Assembly: GCF_958298935.1 (NCBI RefSeq) | Contig: NC_084922.1 | Span: 46,287,958 to 46,351,957 of the forward strand | Source of the DNA: Phragmites australis | Taxonomy: Eukaryota > Streptophyta > Magnoliopsida > Poales > Poaceae | Length of the DNA: 64,000 bases | Direction: 5' to 3' | Notes under the pieces: generated by a model | The model's database searches: none | Told to the model about the DNA's origin: nothing | The model's input: only the letters and a program-made list of their open reading frames with translations | Part shown: positions 44,780 through 55,953 of the stretch, in pieces | Numbering within the stretch: position 1 is the stretch's first letter | How the letters are laid out: every line of letters begins with the position of its first letter | Made by a program: the position numbers and the translations under genes

Positions 44780-44789
44780 TAGAATTGTC

Positions 44790-45242
44790 GGCAAATTTGG
44801 GAATTTAGACAACATACGTGACCGTATTTGCGAAAATAGACAACATGTCGACGTATTTGCAAATCTAGCACTCGTATTCGGTATCTCAAATACCGAAATT
44901 TGAATTTCGGAAACTGAAAATCCGAAAACACCGTATTCGGCAACTGAGGTGCCGAATACGGCCCACAGTGCCGTATTCGGCACCTCAGTTGCCGAATACG
45001 CCGGTCGACCGATTTGCCACCGATTTTGCTGCGTCGCATCAATCTCTTTTACGTCACATCAATCATTTTTCCCTTCCCTCCCGTGATGCTTTCGGCCGGT
45101 GCATGCATTTGTTGTTTTGGCGCCACACGCGGAGAGATCGCTGCTCTGCTGAATAAATTGAGGTCGCAGCAGCAGCAGAGCAGAAAAGGGAGAAGAGAAG
45201 GGAGCAGAGGAACGCGAGAAGCATCAGCAGAAGAGGAGCAAC
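44790..45242 (+). repeat. Left TIR with promoter and leader exon
   Basis: The outer 220 bp (to about 45005) match the complement of 53700-53921 closely, including the blocks TTTAGACAACATACG, GACAACATGTCGACGTATTTG and GCACTCGTATTCGGTATC. The inner part is more diverged: GATGCTTTCGG, then a purine-rich segment with CAG repeats. It ends at a splice donor, CAAC|GTAAGC, at 45242/45243. This donor pairs with an acceptor TTTAGCAG at 45828, giving a 586-bp AT-rich intron before the PMD ATG. The AT-rich part carries loose repeats of TTAGAGTACTTAG (45420-45660). Confidence 0.75.
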
Positions 45243-45908
45243 GTAAGCACTTAATTAGCTTTCGTACCGGTTAGTCCTTATATTACCTATTTAATACTTA
45301 GGTTAGTAATATTATTTAGAGTAATTAGCTTATTTGGTTAGTCCGTTTTGAAGTAGATTAGTTTTTCAAGAGTAGATTGTTTAATCCGTTCAATTACATT
45401 TTTTTAATTATATTAATTTGATAAATTAGAGTACTTTGATTATATAAATTAGATTATTTAATTACGTTATTAGAGTACTTAGAGTTTAATTAGAGTACTT
45501 AGTTTATTTAATTAGAGTACTTAGATTATACAAATTAGATTATTTAATTACGTTATTAGATTACTTAGATTAATTAATTAGAGTACTTAGTTTATTTAAT
45601 TAGATTAAATGAATTAAATTATTTGATAAATTAGAGTACTTAGATTAATTAATTACGATGCTTAGTTTGATTATATGAATTTGATTAGTCTATATAATTA
45701 TATTATTTAATTAGTTTGATATCATGAATTTCTTTCAACATTGTAATTAGATTGTGTCCTTAGTATAATTATATGAATGTCCTTATCCGGTAAAATTAGA
45801 AAAAATTACGTGTACCTTTGTTTAGCAGATACAATATTATAAAGCTTGTAATATATTCTAATTTGTTGTTCACCTATTTGTTGAACCATAAAGCCTTAAA
45901 TCATTATC

Positions 45909-48501
45909 ATGGCTCATGGTGGTCTTCCCGAGCTTCTTCAGCAGCGGTACGACGAGAACCATAGGGGAAGGATGATATTCACAGGACAACAGGTACCACG
46001 TTTATATGTGCTATTTCATTGGTACGAGAATTTTGAACTAACGCTGTACATGTATTGGATAACTCATGCAGTTGGGTCCGTTACGAGCCCGGAGTGTGCA
46101 CAAGATTAAGGAGTTGGACCCTCGATTCCACGAGCCACTCGCACGGGCGGGACTACTACCTTTCGCTCTCATGATGGCCGGAGCTCCCATGGAGGTCGGT
46201 GGTAGGACACCTCTCCCGGCAATTGATGAGGCACTGCTCACAGGTCTCGTCGACCGCTGGCGTCCTGAGACACACACTTTCCACTTTCCTTTTGGTGAGA
46301 TGGCAGTAACACTGCGGGACGTGGCCATGCTGACCGGGCTGCCAATAAGGGGTGCCCCGTTAATAGTTTCGCGACCCGCAAGGGAGCAGTGGAAGGGTTA
46401 TGTTGCAGATAGGTAATTATTTGTTATGTAATGCATTTAAAATATTACAGTGCTATTAAAGCGTCATTGACCATCTGCATCTTATAGGTTTGGTGTGCAA
46501 TACGACGGGAAGGATGCTGGCCTCTCCATGTCCTGGGTTCATGGGCTGACACAATTCGGTCCATGCCCACTGGATGCGGACGAGAATACACTTATGCAAC
46601 ACTATGAGGTGTACTTATACGTCCTGCTCGGAGGCATCATGTTCTGCAACACGGCAGGCGATTATGTCGTCCCACATATTGTATGGTTAGCAGCCCACCT
46701 CGCGTCACATCCTTATGAGCCTACATCTTACAGTTGGGGATCTGCAGTGTTGGCTGCAACCTACAGAGGATTGTGTGATGCAACCCAGCGAACAAAGAGG
46801 AAGGCAACCATTACAGGGTGCTTACATCTCTTACAGTTATGGAGTTGGGAGTACCTCCCGGTTTCCAGACCTTGGGTGCTCAAGTGCTACTACCCAGTTC
46901 ACATCTCTGATGGCATTGCAGATGACATAAGGCCAACGATGGGGTATCGGTGGATTCATGCCAGGCTAAGATGGAGTCAGCAGCAAGACCATGGTAACTA
47001 CTCCAGGGTGATAAGTGACCTGGACATCCTTAGCGCTGATCTAGTGGATTGGGATCCATGGCGTATGGCACGAGTAAAAGAAATTGCAGATGGTGGACTC
47101 CTGGCATCCTCTTGTAGCCGTGACGCAGACTTATGGTTGACCACATGCTTCTTGTTGTACATGAACTGCGTGGAAGTATATTCTTCAGAACGTGTACAGA
47201 GGCAGTTCGGGTACCGACAGGTGGTGCCTGTTCCAGCACCACGAGACGCCGGACGGGTGCACGAGTAAGTGTGTTATTGTATGTTGCCTTAGTACATTGG
47301 TTATCCATGTTAACAAATTATAACTGTTTATGTCACGTACAGGTGGAGCTCAAAGGGGGGCGGAGGCACGCAGGACTGGGCATCCAAGAATGCCGAGTAC
47401 ATACGGAGGTGGACAGAATCAGCTGCGGTGGATGTCATCATTACTGCTGGACAATACAACGAGGCCACGTACTGGGACTACCTTGCTTGGTACCGTCCGC
47501 GCACGCGTGCCACCTTACTCAGCGGACCTGTACAGCCGGGCCCCAGACCCTTCCCCGAGGATCGTGCCCGCCTACTTCATGTTGTGGTAAGTGATGCGTT
47601 ACTTATATTGGTTTTCTTTGGAAAATATGTGTATTACTGACATGTCCCTCATCTTATACAGACTGAAGAGGCGTATGAGATGCATACGCAAGCGGATCAA
47701 CCTTTTGGGGAACCAAGCAGGTCATCATCGCAGAGGGATCGTAACCCTCTCCGGGAGTACATGAGGACAAGAGGATCCCGCTTCCTAAACGCTATACGTG
47801 GTCTAGGTGGGTGTGCCCCGCAATGGAGGGGGTACGACCAACATGCCATGGACCCGTCTCGTGCCTCCCACAGCAGGCGGTCATCCAGTGCTCGTGAGGA
47901 ACCCGTCCGGTCAGAATCACGACATACATCTTCAGCTTCGGCGCGTCATGTCTCATGTTCCGGTGCTGAGGCCGAGGAGTGCACGCAGCCTCCTGCGCCC
48001 GAGCAGGTTACGCTGGGTTCACTAGCACCTCCGGCTACGATGACACCTCCGGCTGCAGCATCTACTCATCAGGAGGACGTCGTTGACTACACGCAGCAGA
48101 CCCCTTGCTGGAGCGACCCTAATGCTTTTGACTGGGGTGCTGCAATGCATGCGACCGCCACCTTCACTGATCTACTCGGCGGACAGTCCTCCCATGATCT
48201 CAATGAACCTGGAAGTTCACATTGGTACCAGCATGGCGAGCCTTCGGCACACTGGACTCCATCGGAGCACGTTCTAGGGCCGTCCACACTTCCGCACGAG
48301 GATCCTTCGGCATGGTACATGCAGAGCCGAGTAAGCGGGGTGGGATACACGTTCGGTGGGGTTCCCACAGGGCAGGCAGATGATGATGAAGATGACCAAG
48401 GGCACGCAAGGCAGGGGCCTGCGCAGGCTGCTGGGATGAGAGCCACACACCCGCCAGACGCTTACACGCCTGGAGATTGTGTGAGGCATCGTCGCCGTTG
48501 A
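45909..48501 (+). CDS. Plant mobile domain (PMD, MAIN-like) protein, MULE-borne
   Basis: Five exons: 45909-45992, 46072-46412, 46488-47264, 47343-47586 and 47662-48501, all GT-AG with matching phases. They give an intact 761-aa protein. The N-terminal part carries the PMD: LDPRFHEPLARAGL, then the FHFPFGEMAVTLRDVAMLTGLPI.G block, LYVLLGGIMFCNTAGD, then the WDYLAWYRPRTR closing motif. The last exon is a Ser/Pro/Gly-rich low-complexity tail ending HRRR. PMD proteins are related to Arabidopsis MAIN and MAIL1 (transposon silencing, meristem integrity), and the domain also occurs in transposons. Here it sits between MULE TIRs and reads from the left one. Its role in transposition is unknown. The ATG is the first after the predicted leader-intron acceptor. 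Confidence 0.88.
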
Positions 48502-48767
48502 GTAGCCAGGACAATTTGTCATGACACATGTATTATTGATTTTAATGTCGAGGTCATCCCTATTATGTCTTATTCACTGTATTGTTAATTTAAGAAATTC
48601 TCAGTACAGAGGAAACAATAGTAGTTGTAAAGCATAAGTAGCATGGAACCCGGTACAGAGGTTACACATAAAGAGCGAACAACAACAAACATTATCATGT
48701 ACGATACGCCTAAAGAACATAATATCATGCCTTAAGGGAATAAAATATATAGGGTTACAATAGATGC

Positions 48768-49734
48768 TTAGGGCGAAGGAAAGTGGCGACGCAAATTAGC
48801 GTAAGAATTCCAGGTGCGATGGTCAAAGCTATAAGGGTAAGATGGTTGTCGTCTCCGAGGTGGTTCTGGGAAGTTGTAAAAATGAGTACGAGCAAATCCA
48901 TCATCATTTTCAGGGTCATCGGTGTCCTCCGGAGATGGAAGCCTCGGAGGGCGGGGTCGTTGTGGCATGAAATCGTCGTCGTCGTTATCATCTTGAGGTT
49001 TCTCCGAGGTGGTACCACGTCCTATTTCCCTATCAGTTGTATGGCATCTCGATGTTGTGCGTGAACGTCCTCTTGCAGTGTTCCTAGAACTTTCTCCTGT
49101 ATTTCTGTTCGAATGTCTAGGCATGGGGGGCATGAAATCGTCATCATCTTCGTCATCGTCATTATCTGGATGATTCGTAGAGGTCGCCTCTGTACCCCTT
49201 TGATTCGCTGACTGTCGTCTTCTTCTACGCGAACCAGGCATCACACCCCCGTCGAAGAGCATACACATCGTCAAGAAGTGTGAGATTTCTTTGTTGATCA
49301 ACTGTTCGTCTTCCGGGAAAGCCTGACGCAGAAGAGGACCGTTCGAATCAATGGAAATAAGATAAGTAGGGTGACCAAATGTTTATATGACATACCTGAA
49401 TATGGGATGCATACTGGTCTGGCGACATTACTATCGTTCTTTGCCTCCTAGAGAAACCTATCACAGAAGGATGGTCAGCCAGTTCGCGGACCCTCAGATA
49501 CATTTGACGTCGGTGATACAAGAGGGCCCTAAGGTCCTCGGTGGTTACACATTGGAGTGGCGCGGTTAACCTAGAACATATGGGTCTTGCATGCAATTTC
49601 GCCACGGCTTGGATTATGTTGTTCTCCTTTAACGGATCATCGTTTCCTTCGCGCACAACCTGTAAGGAGGCATTAAGTGCTATAGCGATCGTTGCAGGTG
49701 TCCATGGAAAGCCTGTACTAGAGGATCCCGCCAT
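48768..49734 (-). CDS. MYB/SANT-like DNA-binding protein, MULE-borne
   Basis: Two exons on minus, 49734-49396 and 49322-48768, phase-0 GT-AG intron of 73 bp, 297 aa, intact. Residues 1-145 start MAGSSSTGFPWTPATIAIAL. They contain LRALLYHRRQMYLRVRELADH, IGFSRRQ..IVMSPDQYASHI, and FPEDEQLINKEI..FLTMCMLFDG. This layout recalls MYB/SANT-like (Myb_DNA-bind_3) proteins, which occur in plants and as partners of PIF/Harbinger transposases. The tail has two acidic repeats ending DDDDFMP followed by Arg/Pro-rich blocks. An acceptor-like GATGCAG near 49770 suggests an untranslated upstream exon, possibly spliced from the right-TIR leader. Fold assignment is by motif, so moderately sure; the gene structure is well supported. 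Confidence 0.72.
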
Positions 49735-49972
49735 AGATTTCTTGCTCACTGACTACCTACGCTCTGTCTCTGCATCAAAACACGGATCCATGAATATTTA
49801 AGAAACACGAAATAAATAAATAAAATTACATTTACAATACAATGGTCACTTCTTGTCTAAAGGGGTACAGTGCAAACCACATAATGCACAATAAGTAGTA
49901 CAACTAACAGGTGAATAACATTTTACAATACAAAGTCTCTAAGATAGTTCAGTTTGACAGTGGGCTGATAGT

Positions 49973-52568
49973 TTACTGACGGGTCGGGCAAGTCCTCCTG
50001 TCATGTCCAGGTTGTTTGCAAAGTTTGCACCTGCGAAGGCCATCAACAGCATCTGCTTCATCCATGTCACCTTGCAGCCTCGTAGATCTAGGCCTTCCAG
50101 GATCTGTGCGTCGTGCTCGTGGATAAGGTACCCACTTAGGGCCCTCGATCGATTTGTAGTTGGTTCCGATGTTAAAGGACCGCATCTTTGGAAGCCATGT
50201 GCTCCTCAATGCATCGATCGTGAAGTACGGTGATACGTACTGTGATCCGTCATTGCCACCTATGTCCCTGCAAGCGGCTAAGACATGCGAGCACGGGATA
50301 TGGTGCAGTTTTGGCTTATTGCATGTGCACTTCACCTCGTTAGGTCCAAGTTGACATTGCTGCACGGTGTCCCCGGCGCTATACCCTGAAGCATACCTAC
50401 GGCGGCACATGACCTCAAAGTCATTGTTGGCCAAGTCGTAGATCCTCGACCGATGAAAGTGTGCCTTGCTCCTCCTTCTTGATATGATTTGCTCCACCTT
50501 AGGTGAAAACCGTGTGCTGCACTTCATAGCAGCATTACCACGGTCTCGAAAGTAGTCCGCCGTTCTGTAGAATGTGAGCTCAATAATGGCACACAACGGG
50601 AGGCCCCGTACTCCCTTCAGGACATTGTTGAACGCCTCCGCTATGTTCATTGTCATGATGGAGTACCTAACATGGGATACAATAATTTTAGAATGGCTAT
50701 TTGCATAAGAATCGGTACAATATGATCATTACAATTCTATGCGCTAACCTGGCACCATGAGTGTCATGGATAAGGGCCCAACGCTCCGCCGGCTTCCCCG
50801 CTATCCACTGGCTAAATGTACCACGTGAACGACTAACGATAGTTTGGCCCCCAACCATTTGCGCCCGCAGTTGATCCTCCCCTGCTTGCTGGTCTGCCAT
50901 CATCTTGCGAGTGGTCTCATTTAACTCTCTCCATATCTCGTTGAACTTCGCCTGCTGGTTCTGAAGACATAGCCCTTTGAATCTCTTTACAAGCGACTTG
51001 CTGCGGTACCTTGTGTACAGGTTCGCGCCCAAGTGTCGCATGCACCATCTTCTCTCCACATCAGGCCATGCAATAGAGCAGTTTGTGCTATCATGCAGCA
51101 CGTCCAACGCATGCAGAAGACCCTTGTTGCGGTCTGAGATGACGCAAACTCGTTCCCTATTTCCCACAACACGTGTCCTTACCAAGGTGAGGAACCACAG
51201 CCAACTATCATTGTTTTCACTCTCAACCATTGCAAAGGCGAGAGGAATGATCTGATTATTTGCATCCGCCGCCATTGCTGTCATAAGGGTACCATGGAAC
51301 TTACCGCTTAGAAATGTGGCATCCACGCATACAACCGGCCTACAATGCCTGAATGCTTCGATGCATTGTCCAAAGGACCAGAATAACCTAATGAGGTATC
51401 GGTCAGTGGTGCTATATGACCCATCATCTAGCCTGATCGGCTCATCCGCCATGGCCCACTGAGTCCCTGGATTCGTCATGGCAATCTTCTGCAGCAGTCT
51501 CAGAGCATTGTTGTATGACTCTTCGAAGCTTCCAAACAGCATCTTCAATGCCTTCTGCTTCGCTCGCCACGCGGTGTGGTAATTGATAAGCATGCCAGTC
51601 TTAGTGTGCACCTCCCCCATAATCGATTTTGGCGACAAACAAATTTCTGTGCCAATAAGCGTGATGAGGAGTTGGGCTACGAACCTCGCATCAACGGCGT
51701 GGCTCACATTCCTAATAGCCTCTTCGCTGCATGTATGTGGGGTGTGTCTACTAATCACAAAATAGTTCTCATATTTCGGCTGATGTGCTCGTACGAAGTA
51801 AGGGCAATTCGGGTGCTTCGTACACCTGACCTCATACTCCGTAGGGTTAGACCGGGCGCACTTGTGGTCCCTTCTTGTTATTACAGCATAGTTGCTAATA
51901 AAGTGGATGACCTCCCCTCTGTTACGAAACTGTTGCCCGACCTGAATATCGCTATTCTGGTATCCCCAGTTAGATAAGGTGTTATACTCAACGACGACAC
52001 ACTCCAGGAGCCCAGTACCACGAAAGTACTGGATCGCCGGGACCGGGTCATCATTGTCAGCAGCTTCTTCATCCCCGCTACCACCGTCTTCATTATCCAT
52101 GCATCCTGCATCGACCTCACCAGGGTCCACTCTACCTCCCTCTCTACTGGAACTGCCCTCCCCGACATGCCCTCCATCCTCTTCATGCATCACCTCCTGG
52201 CTTGAGCCTTCCACAGTGGTCACTGCATCACCTTGCACCAGTCATGACACTATGTTTACGTACACCGCCATATCAAAGTTCTCCTCCAATGCCTTGCGTG
52301 AGTACAAAGCCCATGCGTTGTTCCTACTCATCTCGAACAACGTATGGACAATGACCGAGCTATTTGGAACAAGCCGCGGCCGTACACCCTCTAAGACAAC
52401 AGTATGGGACTGCTGGTTCACACGCAAAAGGCGCATAATATGTGATTTCAGGCCATCTAGATCAATAGGTACCTCAACCGAACTCTCTATGTGCTGGCAG
52501 TTCTGAATTGTTACAAGTCTCCCGTGCAAAACTGTGGGACGTTCTCCATAATAAATATGAAAAATCAT
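49973..52568 (-). pseudogene. MURA-type transposase with one in-frame TGA
   Basis: Exon A runs 52568-50749 and exon B 50666-49973, with an 82-bp GT-AG intron splitting HGA-R. The frame is open apart from TGA at 52244-52242, after VNIVS; a Trp codon there (TGG to TGA) is likely. Domains in order: an N-terminal domain beginning MIFHIYYGERP; an acidic linker; a zinc-binding C-x4-C..H..C region (CTKHPNCPYF); the DDE core with CVDATFLSGKFHG (Asp) and ISDRNKGLLHAL (Asp); RRWCMRHLGAN; a SWIM finger (CTC..PCSH, in exon B); and a C-x2-C-x4-H-x4-C zinc knuckle (CKLCKQPGHDRRTC) near the end. It would cut and join element ends. Restart at Met (52190) would keep everything but the first domain. The gene is otherwise complete. 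Confidence 0.9.
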
Positions 52569-52641
52569 ACCGTATCTCCTAAATAAATATACATGTAATA
52601 AATAATAAGTACAAAAATAATACTAATTAAATAGTGCAATA

Positions 52642-52761
52642 TACAACTAATATGCATCTTTGTTGCTACTGGACACTATCTTCTACGGTTCTACCAAACC
52701 TTACAACTAATATGCATCTTTGTTGCTACTGGACACTATCTTCTACGGTTCTACCAAACCT
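52642..52761. repeat. Perfect 60-bp tandem duplication in the leader intron
   Basis: Two 60-bp copies (52642-52701 and 52702-52761), identical as read. Each runs from TACAACTAATATGCATC to CTACCAAACCT. They lie in the predicted intron between the right-TIR leader exon and the transposase ATG. Confidence 0.9.
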
Positions 52762-52797
52762 AAGTGATTAAACTAATTAATCAAGTTAATTGATTAA

Positions 52798-53317
52798 TTA
52801 TATTACTTTAATAAAACTAATTACCTAGATTAAATCACGTAAATTCATGTTACTATATTAAGTAAAGAATCTAATCACACTTACTAATAAAACTTATATA
52901 ACCCAACTAAATCATTAATTTAAATACTCTAATTTACCAAAATAATATAATTAATCAAATGTACTTGAATGAATTTAACAATATACTGACGAAATGACTA
53001 ATATACTTCTGAACGAACTAAGAAAAATCTAATTATAATTACTAATTAACTACGTAATTATATTACTTTAATAAAACTAATTACCTAGATTAAATCCCGT
53101 AAATTCATGTTACTATATTAAGTAAAGAATCTAATCACACTTACTAATAAAAATTATATAACCCAACTAAATCATTAATTTAAATACTCTAATTTACCAA
53201 AATAATATAATTAATCAAATGTACTTGAATGAATTTAACAATATACTGACGAAATGATTAATATACTTCTGAACGAACTAAAAAAAATCTAATTATAATT
53301 ACTAATTAACTACGTAA
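52798..53317. repeat. 260-bp tandem duplication in the leader intron
   Basis: Two copies (52798-53057 and 53058-53317) are offset by exactly 260 bp and differ at only a handful of positions (for example TAAATCACG versus TAAATCCCG, GACTAATA versus GATTAATA). AT-rich, non-coding. High identity implies recent duplication within the MULE. Confidence 0.92.
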
Positions 53318-53330
53318 TCTAAAAACTTAC

Positions 53331-53921
53331 CTTAAGGAAATTGAGCGCGGCTGCTGCTCGCGTTGATCCTCTCCGGCTGCCCCCTCTGCTCGAGCTACTT
53401 CTCCTAGCGTTGCTCCGTTGCTGCTCTCTTCTCTCCACTGCTGCTCTCTTTTCTTCTCCCTTCTCTCCTTTGCTGCTCTCTTCTCTTCTCCCTTCTCTCC
53501 TTTGCTGCTCTCTTCTCTTCTCCCTTCTCTCTTCTGCGAGCCAGGGCTTTTATTAAGCGCAAAAGCAGCATCCCGCTGGCACGCACACACCGAAAGCATT
53601 GACAGGACGTGGAAGTGACATGATGTACTGAATTCGGCAACTGAGGTGCCGAATACGGCACTGTGGGCTGTATTCGGCACCTCAGTTGCCGAATACAGCA
53701 GAGTACAGGGTGTATTCGGCAACTGAGGTGCCGAATACAGCCCACAGTGCCGTATTCGGTACCTCAGTTGCCGAATACGGTGTTTTCGGATTTTCAGTTT
53801 CCGAAATTCAAATTTCGGTATTTGAGATACCGAATACGAGTGCTAGATTTGCAAATACGTCGACATGTTGTCTATTTTCGCAAATACGGTCGCGTATGTT
53901 GTCTAAATTTCCAAATTTGCC
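53331..53921 (-). repeat. Right TIR with promoter and leader exon
   Basis: The outer 220 bp are the complement of the left TIR. An additional pair of GTATTCGGCA/TGCCGAATAC palindromes makes it longer. The inner part carries GATGCTGC..GCTTAATAAAAG and a GA-rich (minus-strand) leader containing three 32-bp repeats. It ends at the splice donor TTAAG|GTAAG at 53331/53330. The matching acceptor TATTTAG lies at 52579, 11 bp before the transposase ATG, giving a 752-bp intron. Confidence 0.75.
53439..53534. repeat. Three-copy 32-bp CT-rich tandem repeat
   Basis: TGCTGCTCTCTT.TCTTCTCC repeats at an offset of 32 bp (53439, 53471, 53503). On the minus strand this is a GA-rich leader sequence. The corresponding position of the left TIR (45165-45215) has one related purine-rich segment. 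Confidence 0.8.
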
Positions 53922-53950
53922 TAGAACTGTCAGCTCGTGCGATGGATAGA

Positions 53951-55953
53951 GATGCGGGAGAGACAAATACAAAAATAGACAACATACGCTAGCATATTTA
54001 CGAAAATAGACAACATATCGGCGTATTTGTAAATCTAGCATCTGTATTCGGCACTTTAAAATCCGAAAACTCAATTTCGGTACCTCAAACTCCGAAAATA
54101 CGTTGAGCCCACTAATTTCGGCAACTGAAGTACCGAATACGACACTGTTTACCGTATTCGACACCTCAAATACCAAAAACACGCTGTATTCGGCAACTGA
54201 GGTGCCGAAAGCCGTATTCGGCACCTCAGTTGCCGAATACGGCTTCTACCGTGCAGGGAGAAGCTAGCAAGCTACAGTAGAACGCAGAAATGTGTTAAAA
54301 ATTCATGTTTTTTATTTAACTCACGATTTTATTTGGGAGTATAAAAATAGTCTAAAAATTCTAAACATTTTCACGAATAAAATAGAGGTCACTAGCAATC
54401 CGTTTTAATTGGTTTGATCCAAAAAGCATGAGCCAATATTTAATTAAAATTCTCTAAATAAGCTAACTTTTATAAATTCTAGCAATTTTTAATACCTCAA
54501 ATAAATTCTCAAAAATCTAGAAAAAAATCACTAATATTCTTCTAATGTGATGTACTAATTTATAAAAATGTTTCGAACCCTATGTTATTTGGTGAAAAAA
54601 TAAGTTCCTTTATAATGATACATTTATATGCATTCTTATCATTTCATGTCATATTCTCTTTTAATTCATTTCATGTGACATTCTCTTTTTAATTCATTTC
54701 ATTTCATGTACTAATATTTTATTATTTCAAGCTCACCCAGCACATTTGACGATGAGATATGCTAATATCCTCTCTGTTTGACATCCTCATTTATATGCAT
54801 TCTTATCATTTCATGTGATATTCTCTTTTTAATTCAATTTAAATAAAAATAAATGCATACATTCTCTTTTAATTCATTTCATGTGATATTCTCTTTTATC
54901 ATTTCAAGCTCACCCAGCACATTTGACGATGAGATGTGCTAATATTCTTCTCATGTAATGCAGTCAACATGAACATATTAAGATTGATTTTCATGCACCT
55001 TTGTTGTCTGCACTAAGGAAGCAAAAAAATTCCCAACCAAACATTGTCACTCCTCGGTAGATCGAAACACCTTCGCAAGTGCGCAACATCCTCTTGCCTT
55101 GTCATGCTTTTCATCTTCTCAGCCGTATATCTTCACATCACTCCAGCCATGACAACAAGGGCGGTCATCCTCCACAAAAGAGAATATCGCATGAAATGAA
55201 TTAAAAGAGAATGTATGCGTTTATTTTTATTCAAATTGAATTAAAAGAGAATATGACATGAAATGATAAGAATGCATATAAATGGATCATTATAAAGGAA
55301 CTTATTTTTTCACTAAATAACATAGGGTTTGAAACATTTTTATAAATTAGTACATCACATTAGAAGAATATTAGTGATTTTTTCTAGATTTTTGAGAATT
55401 TATTTGAGGTATTAAAAATTGCTAGAATTTATAAAAGTTAGCTTATTTAGAGAATTTTAATTAAATATTGGCTCATGATTTTTGGATCAAACCAATTAAA
55501 ACGGATTGCTAGTGACCTCTATTTTGTTCGTGAAAATGTTTAGAATTTTTAGACTATTTTTATACTCCCAAATAAAATCGTGAGTTAAATAAAAAACATG
55601 AATTTTTAACACATTTTTGCGTTCTGCTGTAGCTTGCTAGCTTCTCGCTGCAAGGTAGAAGCCGTATTCGGCAACCGAGGTGCCGAATACGGCTTTCGGC
55701 GTCTCAGTTGCCAAATACAGCGTGTTTTCGGTATTTAAGGTGTAAAATACGGTGAACAGTATCGTATTCGGTATTTTAGTTGTCGAAATCAGTGGGCCCG
55801 ACGTATTTTCGGAGTTTGAGTACCGAAATCGAGTTTTCGGATTTTAAAGTGCCGAATACAGATGCTAGATTTACAAATACGTCGATATGTTGTTTATTTT
55901 TGCAAATACGCTAACGTATGTTGTTTATTTTTGTATTTTTGCCGATGCGGGAG
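53951..55953. mobile_element. 1.98-kb non-autonomous foldback MULE, same TIR family
   Basis: The element spans 53961-55943 with perfect 10-bp TSDs GATGCGGGAG (53951-53960 and 55944-55953). Arms of about 660 bp (53961-54620 and 55255-55943) are inverted copies. They share with the 9-kb MULE the ACAACATACG, AAATACGTCGA..TGTTGT and GCCGAATACGG palindromic blocks. The centre has a direct repeat (TTTCAAGCTCACCCAGCACA at 54726 and 54903) and about 230 bp of single-copy sequence (54960-55190). There are no genes. It starts 29 bp past the right TSD of the 9-kb element and could be mobilised by a related transposase. Confidence 0.88.

What the first reader, a model, noticed from the sequence alone, without database searches (positions are those of the whole stretch)
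44780..53931. A 9-kb MULE carrying three genes: PMD protein, SANT-like protein and MURA transposase
Seen directly: inverted TIRs, a 10-bp near-perfect TSD, and three multi-exon genes with consistent splice phases. Two are fully open and one is interrupted by a single stop. Established: maize MuDR carries mudrA and mudrB convergently from two TIR promoters, and PMDs are known in transposons. Inferred: this is a recently mobile element whose second and third genes are accessory proteins. They could counter silencing (PMD, related to MAIN/MAIL1 silencing factors) and bind DNA (SANT-like). The pairing of a PMD gene with a SANT-like gene beside MURA is, to my knowledge, not a standard described MULE architecture.
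Basis: partly seen in the sequence, partly recalled or inferred. Interest (0 to 1): 0.88.

Follow-up and report, generated by a model that had tools for sequence, protein, structure and literature searches.

The report
Reed transposon with VANC-like silencing escape
A 9-kb plant jumping gene, likely from common reed, carries a transposase gene plus two further genes that are conserved by selection; one of these encodes a protein predicted to fold like VANC21, which some Arabidopsis jumping genes use to escape silencing, so it would likely protect this element in a similar way.

Summary
Window 44790-53921 (9,132 bp) is a Mutator-like element (MULE) with 213-bp TIRs, a 10-bp TSD (9 of 10 match) and three spliced genes: PMD (PF10536), a 297-aa middle gene, and a MURA transposase with one in-frame stop. 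The genome (likely Phragmites australis) holds a recent family of it. Of 14 elements with both ends in hand, 12 have perfect 9-10 bp TSDs. The middle gene has a convergent PMD within 4 kb at 48 of 73 places. dN/dS against a diverged copy is 0.44 (PMD), 0.37 (middle) and 0.31 (MURA).

I infer that the PMD protein is a VANC-type, sequence-specific anti-silencer. Binding and demethylation are untested.

The parts
44780..44789 (.). left target-site duplication TAGAATTGTC
   Evidence: 9 of 10 bases match the right copy
44790..45002 (+). left TIR, with three palindrome units at 44877, 44936 and 44976
   Evidence: inverted arms 94% complementary; units
45316..45655 (+). 22-bp tandem repeat array (8 core units here)
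   Evidence: TRF; core count
45909..48501 (+). PMD gene: exons 45909-45992, 46072-46412, 46488-47264, 47343-47586, 47662-48501; 761 aa
   Evidence: splice model; PF10536 E 1.7e-62; fold of homologue P0010 matches VANC21
48768..49734 (-). middle gene: exons 49734-49396 and 49322-48768; 297 aa, remote Myb/SANT-like domain in residues about 10-137
   Evidence: splice model; homologues; model; profile alignment
49973..52568 (-). MURA transposase: exons 52568-50749 and 50666-49973; one in-frame TGA at 52244-52242
   Evidence: PF10551, SWIM
52642..52761 (.). 60-bp perfect tandem duplication beside the start of MURA
52795..53318 (.). 260-bp tandem duplication between MURA and the right TIR
53633..53834 (.). 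five palindrome units (53633, 53673, 53715, 53755, 53814), partly inside the right TIR
53709..53921 (-). right TIR
53922..53931 (.). right target-site duplication TAGAACTGTC

Best explanation
This is a 9,132-bp Mutator-like transposon of a recently mobile family, in which two genes are conserved beside the transposase: a plant-mobile-domain (PMD) protein predicted to fold like the DNA-binding part of the anti-silencer VANC21, and a protein that is likely a Myb/SANT-type DNA binder. Shown: element ends, TSDs, gene structures, genome-wide pairing and order of PMD and middle gene, dN/dS below 1 for all three genes against a diverged copy, and arrays of a 21-bp palindrome (element ends) and a 22-bp repeat (between left TIR and PMD) that gene-less derivatives keep. 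Predicted: the PMD core shares the VANC21 fold; the model is of a homologue 39% identical to the window's protein. Inferred: the PMD protein recognises one of the arrays and removes silencing from copies of its own family, as VANC does for VANDALs; the middle protein binds the other array or the TIRs and helps the transposase or its promoters; MURA, made by copies whose frame is open, moves full and short elements.
Against: No binding, methylation or expression data. Fold identity is 9%, and no sequence search links PMD with VANC. Foldseek TM-scores are moderate (0.42 and 0.50, rmsd 7.3). The VANC21 motif is not enriched here (0 or 1 per element). Arabidopsis PMD proteins MAIN and MAIL1 are reported to be needed for silencing, the opposite sign (PMC7156037, PMC5418596; abstracts and passages). 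Internal deletions keep ends in any case, so arrays kept in derivatives need not mean function. Against the closest copies 5 of 5 PMD and 5 of 6 middle-gene dN/dS intervals include 1. Middle gene: no Pfam hit; hhalign probability only 7.7% and 1.2% with the thinner profile, where an unrelated PMD control scored nearly as high though over only 13 columns (16.7 against 17.6).
Confidence: 0.55

Rival explanations
1. The PMD protein is a captured host factor of the MAIN/MAIL1 type that acts as a decoy or competitor of the host PMD-phosphatase complex, without recognising the element's own DNA.
For: MULE PMDs are reported to lie within the host-gene clade PMD-C, and MAIN and MAIL1 work with the phosphatase PP7L (PMC5418596, PMC7156037; passages and abstracts). 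Several homologues listed bear names of the PP7 long form type, and one is named MAIN-LIKE 1 (P0048, 30% identical).
Against: The predicted PMD core matches the DNA-bound VANC21 chain and nothing else well. The element has family-specific repeat arrays.
Confidence: 0.2
2. Both accessory proteins are transposition helpers: they bind the TIR palindromes and assemble the transposase complex, with no role in silencing.
For: Palindromes lie in and beside the TIRs, 8-10 per copy in the window and in L039, L042, L044, L045 and L049 (3 in the older L050). The gene-less derivatives keep them and have perfect TSDs. In maize MuDR, mudrB is described as apparently required for integration (PMC6446971, passage).
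Against: The fold match is to an anti-silencing factor. The 22-bp array lies outside the TIR and expands independently of it.
Confidence: 0.15
3. PMD and the middle gene are captured passengers without function for the element.
For: MULEs often carry host gene fragments (PMC6446971, passage). Of 59 PMD places 11 had no listed middle-gene exon-2 match nearby, and a middle-gene-only element exists (L053). Most dN/dS intervals against the closest copies include 1.
Against: dN/dS against L050 is 0.44 and 0.37 with intervals below 1; complete spliced frames persist in several copies; homologues of the middle gene occur in Eragrostis curvula.
Confidence: 0.05

Closest known systems
PMD-bearing MULEs of grasses (groups MULE-Monocots, MDR, MUDRAVI2, MUDR; PMC6446971)
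   Same: MURA-type transposase with SWIM finger, long TIRs, 9-10 bp TSDs, PMD gene often antisense; 19 of the 120 homologues listed carry PMD together with PF10551.
   Different: A third conserved gene between PMD and MURA; none is named in the passages I saw. The MURA clade was not placed on a tree.
VANDAL21 (Hiun) of Arabidopsis: VANA, VANB and VANC
   Same: Three-gene MULE; the PMD homologue's predicted fold matches VANC21; variable tandem repeats in non-coding parts.
   Different: PF10536 at sequence level, where VANC is described with DUF1985; different repeat sequences; TIRs of 213 bp against 46-174 bp in the table; middle gene not compared with VANB.
Myb/SANT-like DNA-binding family, Pfam PF12776
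   Same: 120-column collinear profile alignment, phase-0 intron in the same column, helical domain with hairpin.
   Different: No hit to the Pfam model in any relative scanned.
Arabidopsis MAIN and MAIL1
   Same: PMD family (recalled and).
   Different: Host genes reported to be needed for silencing, not carried by a transposon; their structures were not compared here.

Membership tests
Mutator-like element (MULE) | long TIRs | tested here: met
   213 bp, 94% over 218-nt arms
Mutator-like element (MULE) | 8-11 bp TSD | tested here: met
   10 bp, 9 of 10; 12 of 14 elements with perfect 9-10 bp
Mutator-like element (MULE) | MURA-type transposase | tested here: met
   PF10551 E 5e-19, SWIM above cut-off; interrupted by one stop in this copy
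PMD family (PF10536) | PMD domain above Pfam cut-off | tested here: met
   212 bits against cut-off 34.9
VANC anti-silencing proteins | fold of the VANC21 DNA-binding part | tested here: met
VANC anti-silencing proteins | DUF1985 at sequence level | tested here: not met
   Pfam scan of the PMD protein lists PF10536 only; profile search of PDB does not list 9lnj
VANC anti-silencing proteins | sequence-specific binding to own repeats and loss of methylation | not testable with these tools
   needs EMSA, ChIP and bisulfite data
Myb/SANT-like (PF12776) | Pfam model above cut-off | tested here: not met
   no PF12776 row (E up to 1 or 10)
Myb/SANT-like (PF12776) | remote profile similarity over the domain | tested here: inconclusive
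   0 of 200 shuffles reach score 22.9, P 0.0045, but HH-suite probability 7.7%
Myb/SANT-like (PF12776) | solved Myb/SANT fold match | tested here: inconclusive
Maize MuDR | mudrB gene | not tested
   no mudrB sequence was fetched; no maize protein was named among the 4 and 13 middle-gene homologues

The most novel reading that the evidence does not exclude
PMD and VANC are one superfamily of sequence-specific DNA-binding anti-silencers carried by plant transposons. PMD-bearing MULEs of grasses, and PMD-bearing Gypsy elements, would use VANC-style recognition of their own repeats to escape silencing, and the host silencing factors MAIN and MAIL1 would be members of this transposon weapon family turned to the host's side. 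In this reed element the system has gained a Myb/SANT-type third partner.
Probability: 0.42. Interest if true: 0.88.

Novelty: new variant of a known kind. Interest (0 to 1): 0.72.

Why it matters
A 2021 review calls PMD a domain of unknown function (PMC8616336, passages). A VANC21-like fold would give it a concrete, testable activity: sequence-specific DNA binding. It would explain why PMDs ride in so many plant MULEs and would bear on how host PMD proteins such as MAIL1 work. The family here has copies with open frames, variable repeat arrays and gene-less derivatives, so targets and effects can be tested directly.

Tried and rejected
Rejected: that the three genes are chance open frames. 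Four of five copies checked keep GT-AG at all four PMD introns; the fifth, L050, has one altered acceptor; frames show constraint against L050. Rejected: that PMD beside MURA is new.
Full report
What is there. Window 44790-53921 is bounded by inverted repeats (arms 44785-45002 and 53709-53926, 218 nt, 94%) and a 10-bp target-site duplication that matches at 9 of 10 bases. Between the ends lie three genes. The PMD gene (plus strand, five exons, 761 aa) matches PF10536 at E 1.7e-62. A two-exon gene on the minus strand encodes 297 aa. A MURA transposase on the minus strand matches PF10551 at 5e-19 and a SWIM finger and carries one TGA at 52244-52242. PMD converges on the other two genes. Splice sites are predicted from sequence; no transcript was seen.

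The host. The closest database protein to the middle gene is 97% identical over its whole length and is named as Phragmites australis. I take it as common reed, an inference from that label.

A recent, multi-copy family. A TIR search scored 40 of 1,631 candidates; the 40 long TIR matches (two of them the window's own) are 93-100% identical. I fetched 15 stretches of 9.9 kb and used the 30 TIR loci of about 3.2 kb that supplied. Of 14 elements with both ends in hand, 12 have perfect 9- or 10-bp duplications, one of them a diverged neighbour; the window has 9 of 10 and the older L050 7 of 9. Elements with an end missing or degraded were not counted. Of the seven copies whose frames were read, two have all three frames open without gaps. 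The window's MURA stop is a sense codon in these seven; in two more copies it fell in a gap. Three short derivatives (in L046, L047, L048; 1.7-1.9 kb) have the same ends and no gene match.

The genes travel together. Of the 12 fetched stretches of the close and 85% classes (L039-L050), eight (L039, L041-L045, L049, L050) hold at least parts of all three genes, L040 lacks MURA, and L046-L048 have none. Genome-wide, 72 middle-gene matches at 80% identity or more were taken from the rows printed (132 of 1,926 candidates scored): 48 have a PMD match within 4 kb, all convergent. One further such place was left out by oversight and has no PMD row printed near it, so 48 of 73. Of 59 PMD places taken (59 of 6,185 candidates scored), 48 have a middle-gene match. 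The 11 others include L042, which keeps exon 1 of the middle gene, and four diverged PMD relatives (61-65% over their C-terminal parts) with no listed middle gene, so the middle gene may have been gained or lost within the wider group. These counts are lower bounds, since only the best candidates were scored. MURA could not be counted genome-wide because the server did not answer.

Constraint. Window against L050 (DNA identity: PMD 93%, middle gene 93%, MURA 94% before and 96% after the stop): dN/dS is PMD 0.44 (bootstrap 0.32-0.60), middle gene 0.37 (0.22-0.67), MURA after the stop 0.31 (0.20-0.50), before it 0.32 (0.11-0.94). Two other copies against L050 give PMD 0.44 and middle gene 0.43. 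The same alignments in the other two frames give 0.71-1.55, antisense 0.45-0.79. L050 carries a stop in each gene, so neutral decay after insertion is included and pushes the values up. Against the closest copies the counts are too small: 5 of 5 PMD intervals (one point estimate is 1.10) and 5 of 6 middle-gene intervals include 1; for MURA after the stop 1 of 6 does. The claim of constraint on the accessory genes thus rests on L050.

What the middle gene is. Pfam finds nothing above threshold in the window protein or the relatives scanned. Relatives occur in Phragmites, in Eragrostis curvula and on short unnamed contigs: 4 and 13 proteins in two searches that scored only the candidates sharing most words. 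A model from nine sequences has a confident N-terminal domain (10-residue blocks 77-94 from residue 11 to 140), ordered helix, helix, helix, beta hairpin, helix, and a tail of low confidence. Against eight Myb/SANT-like (PF12776) proteins of the same genome, hhalign aligns 120 collinear columns, score 22.9, P 0.0045; 0 of 200 column shuffles reach it (maximum 18.9), but the HH-suite probability is only 7.7%. A thinner profile gave P 0.042; there the reversed control aligned 21 columns (score 11.8) and an unrelated PMD profile 13 columns, with a score close to the real one (16.7 against 17.6). In that alignment, made without intron information, the phase-0 intron of the middle gene (after ASHIQ) falls in the column where the PF12776 genes L054, L055 and L057 are interrupted, by predicted splice sites.

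Candidate targets. VANC21 binds a nine-base motif that has multiplied as tandem repeats in the non-coding parts of its own element (PMC5735166, abstract and passages). This element has two kinds of array. One is a 21-bp palindrome, TTCGGCA-N7-TGCCGAA with variants: five units at each end in L039, L044 and L045, the inner four spaced 40 or 42 bp; eight in all in the window; three in L050. Twenty simple shuffles of the window gave none. The other is a 22-bp repeat between the left TIR and the PMD gene, with 8 core units in the window and in L042, 9 in L050, 24-29 in L039, L044, L045 and L049, and 19-23 in the gene-less derivatives. A 17-mer of the repeat occurs 242 times in the genome against 0 for the same word read backwards; 79 of the first 100 places printed lie within 9 kb of a gene or TIR match that I listed, 21 do not. 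The VANC21 motif itself is not enriched (0 or 1 per element).

How it most likely works. Shown: a mobile MULE family with three conserved genes and family-specific repeat arrays. Inferred: the PMD protein is a VANC-type factor that recognises one of the arrays and strips silencing from copies of its own family, so that the genes at both ends are expressed; the middle protein, likely DNA-binding, recognises the palindromes or the other array; MURA moves full and short copies. Against this stands that Arabidopsis MAIN and MAIL1, also PMD proteins, are reported to be needed for silencing; the model would need a change of role between transposon and host. The main rivals are a decoy for the host PMD complex and a pure transposition helper.

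What is known and what is not. MULE, PMD and their pairing are known. A third Myb/SANT-like gene in a PMD MULE was not seen in the listings; only one search used the word SANT, and the library is limited to open-licence papers. The VANC-PMD fold link, if confirmed, is the part that would surprise specialists.

Noticed in passing
window 53976-55943: A diverged short MULE of about 2 kb lies some 50 bp right of the element: inverted ends 70-80% like this family's TIR, with four palindrome units and no match to the three proteins. L046 also holds two neighbouring elements with perfect TSDs.
   Followed up: partly
window 21889-20051 (minus strand): A second MURA-like transposase, 33% identical to this element's, E 4e-90.
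   Followed up: no
L053:4134-6347: A ~2.2-kb element with the middle gene alone (58% identical, with stops) between 118-nt inverted arms that carry two palindrome units with another spacer.
   Followed up: partly
G000:C4:49849007, C17:6166268, C14:20395293, C22:6487258: Four diverged PMD genes (72-76% over the PMD core) with no middle-gene match listed nearby; two have no stop in the matched parts. They may be sister elements from before the middle gene was gained.
   Followed up: no
L051:4283-7093: A decayed copy with PMD and middle gene on the same strand, unlike the convergent order elsewhere.
   Followed up: no
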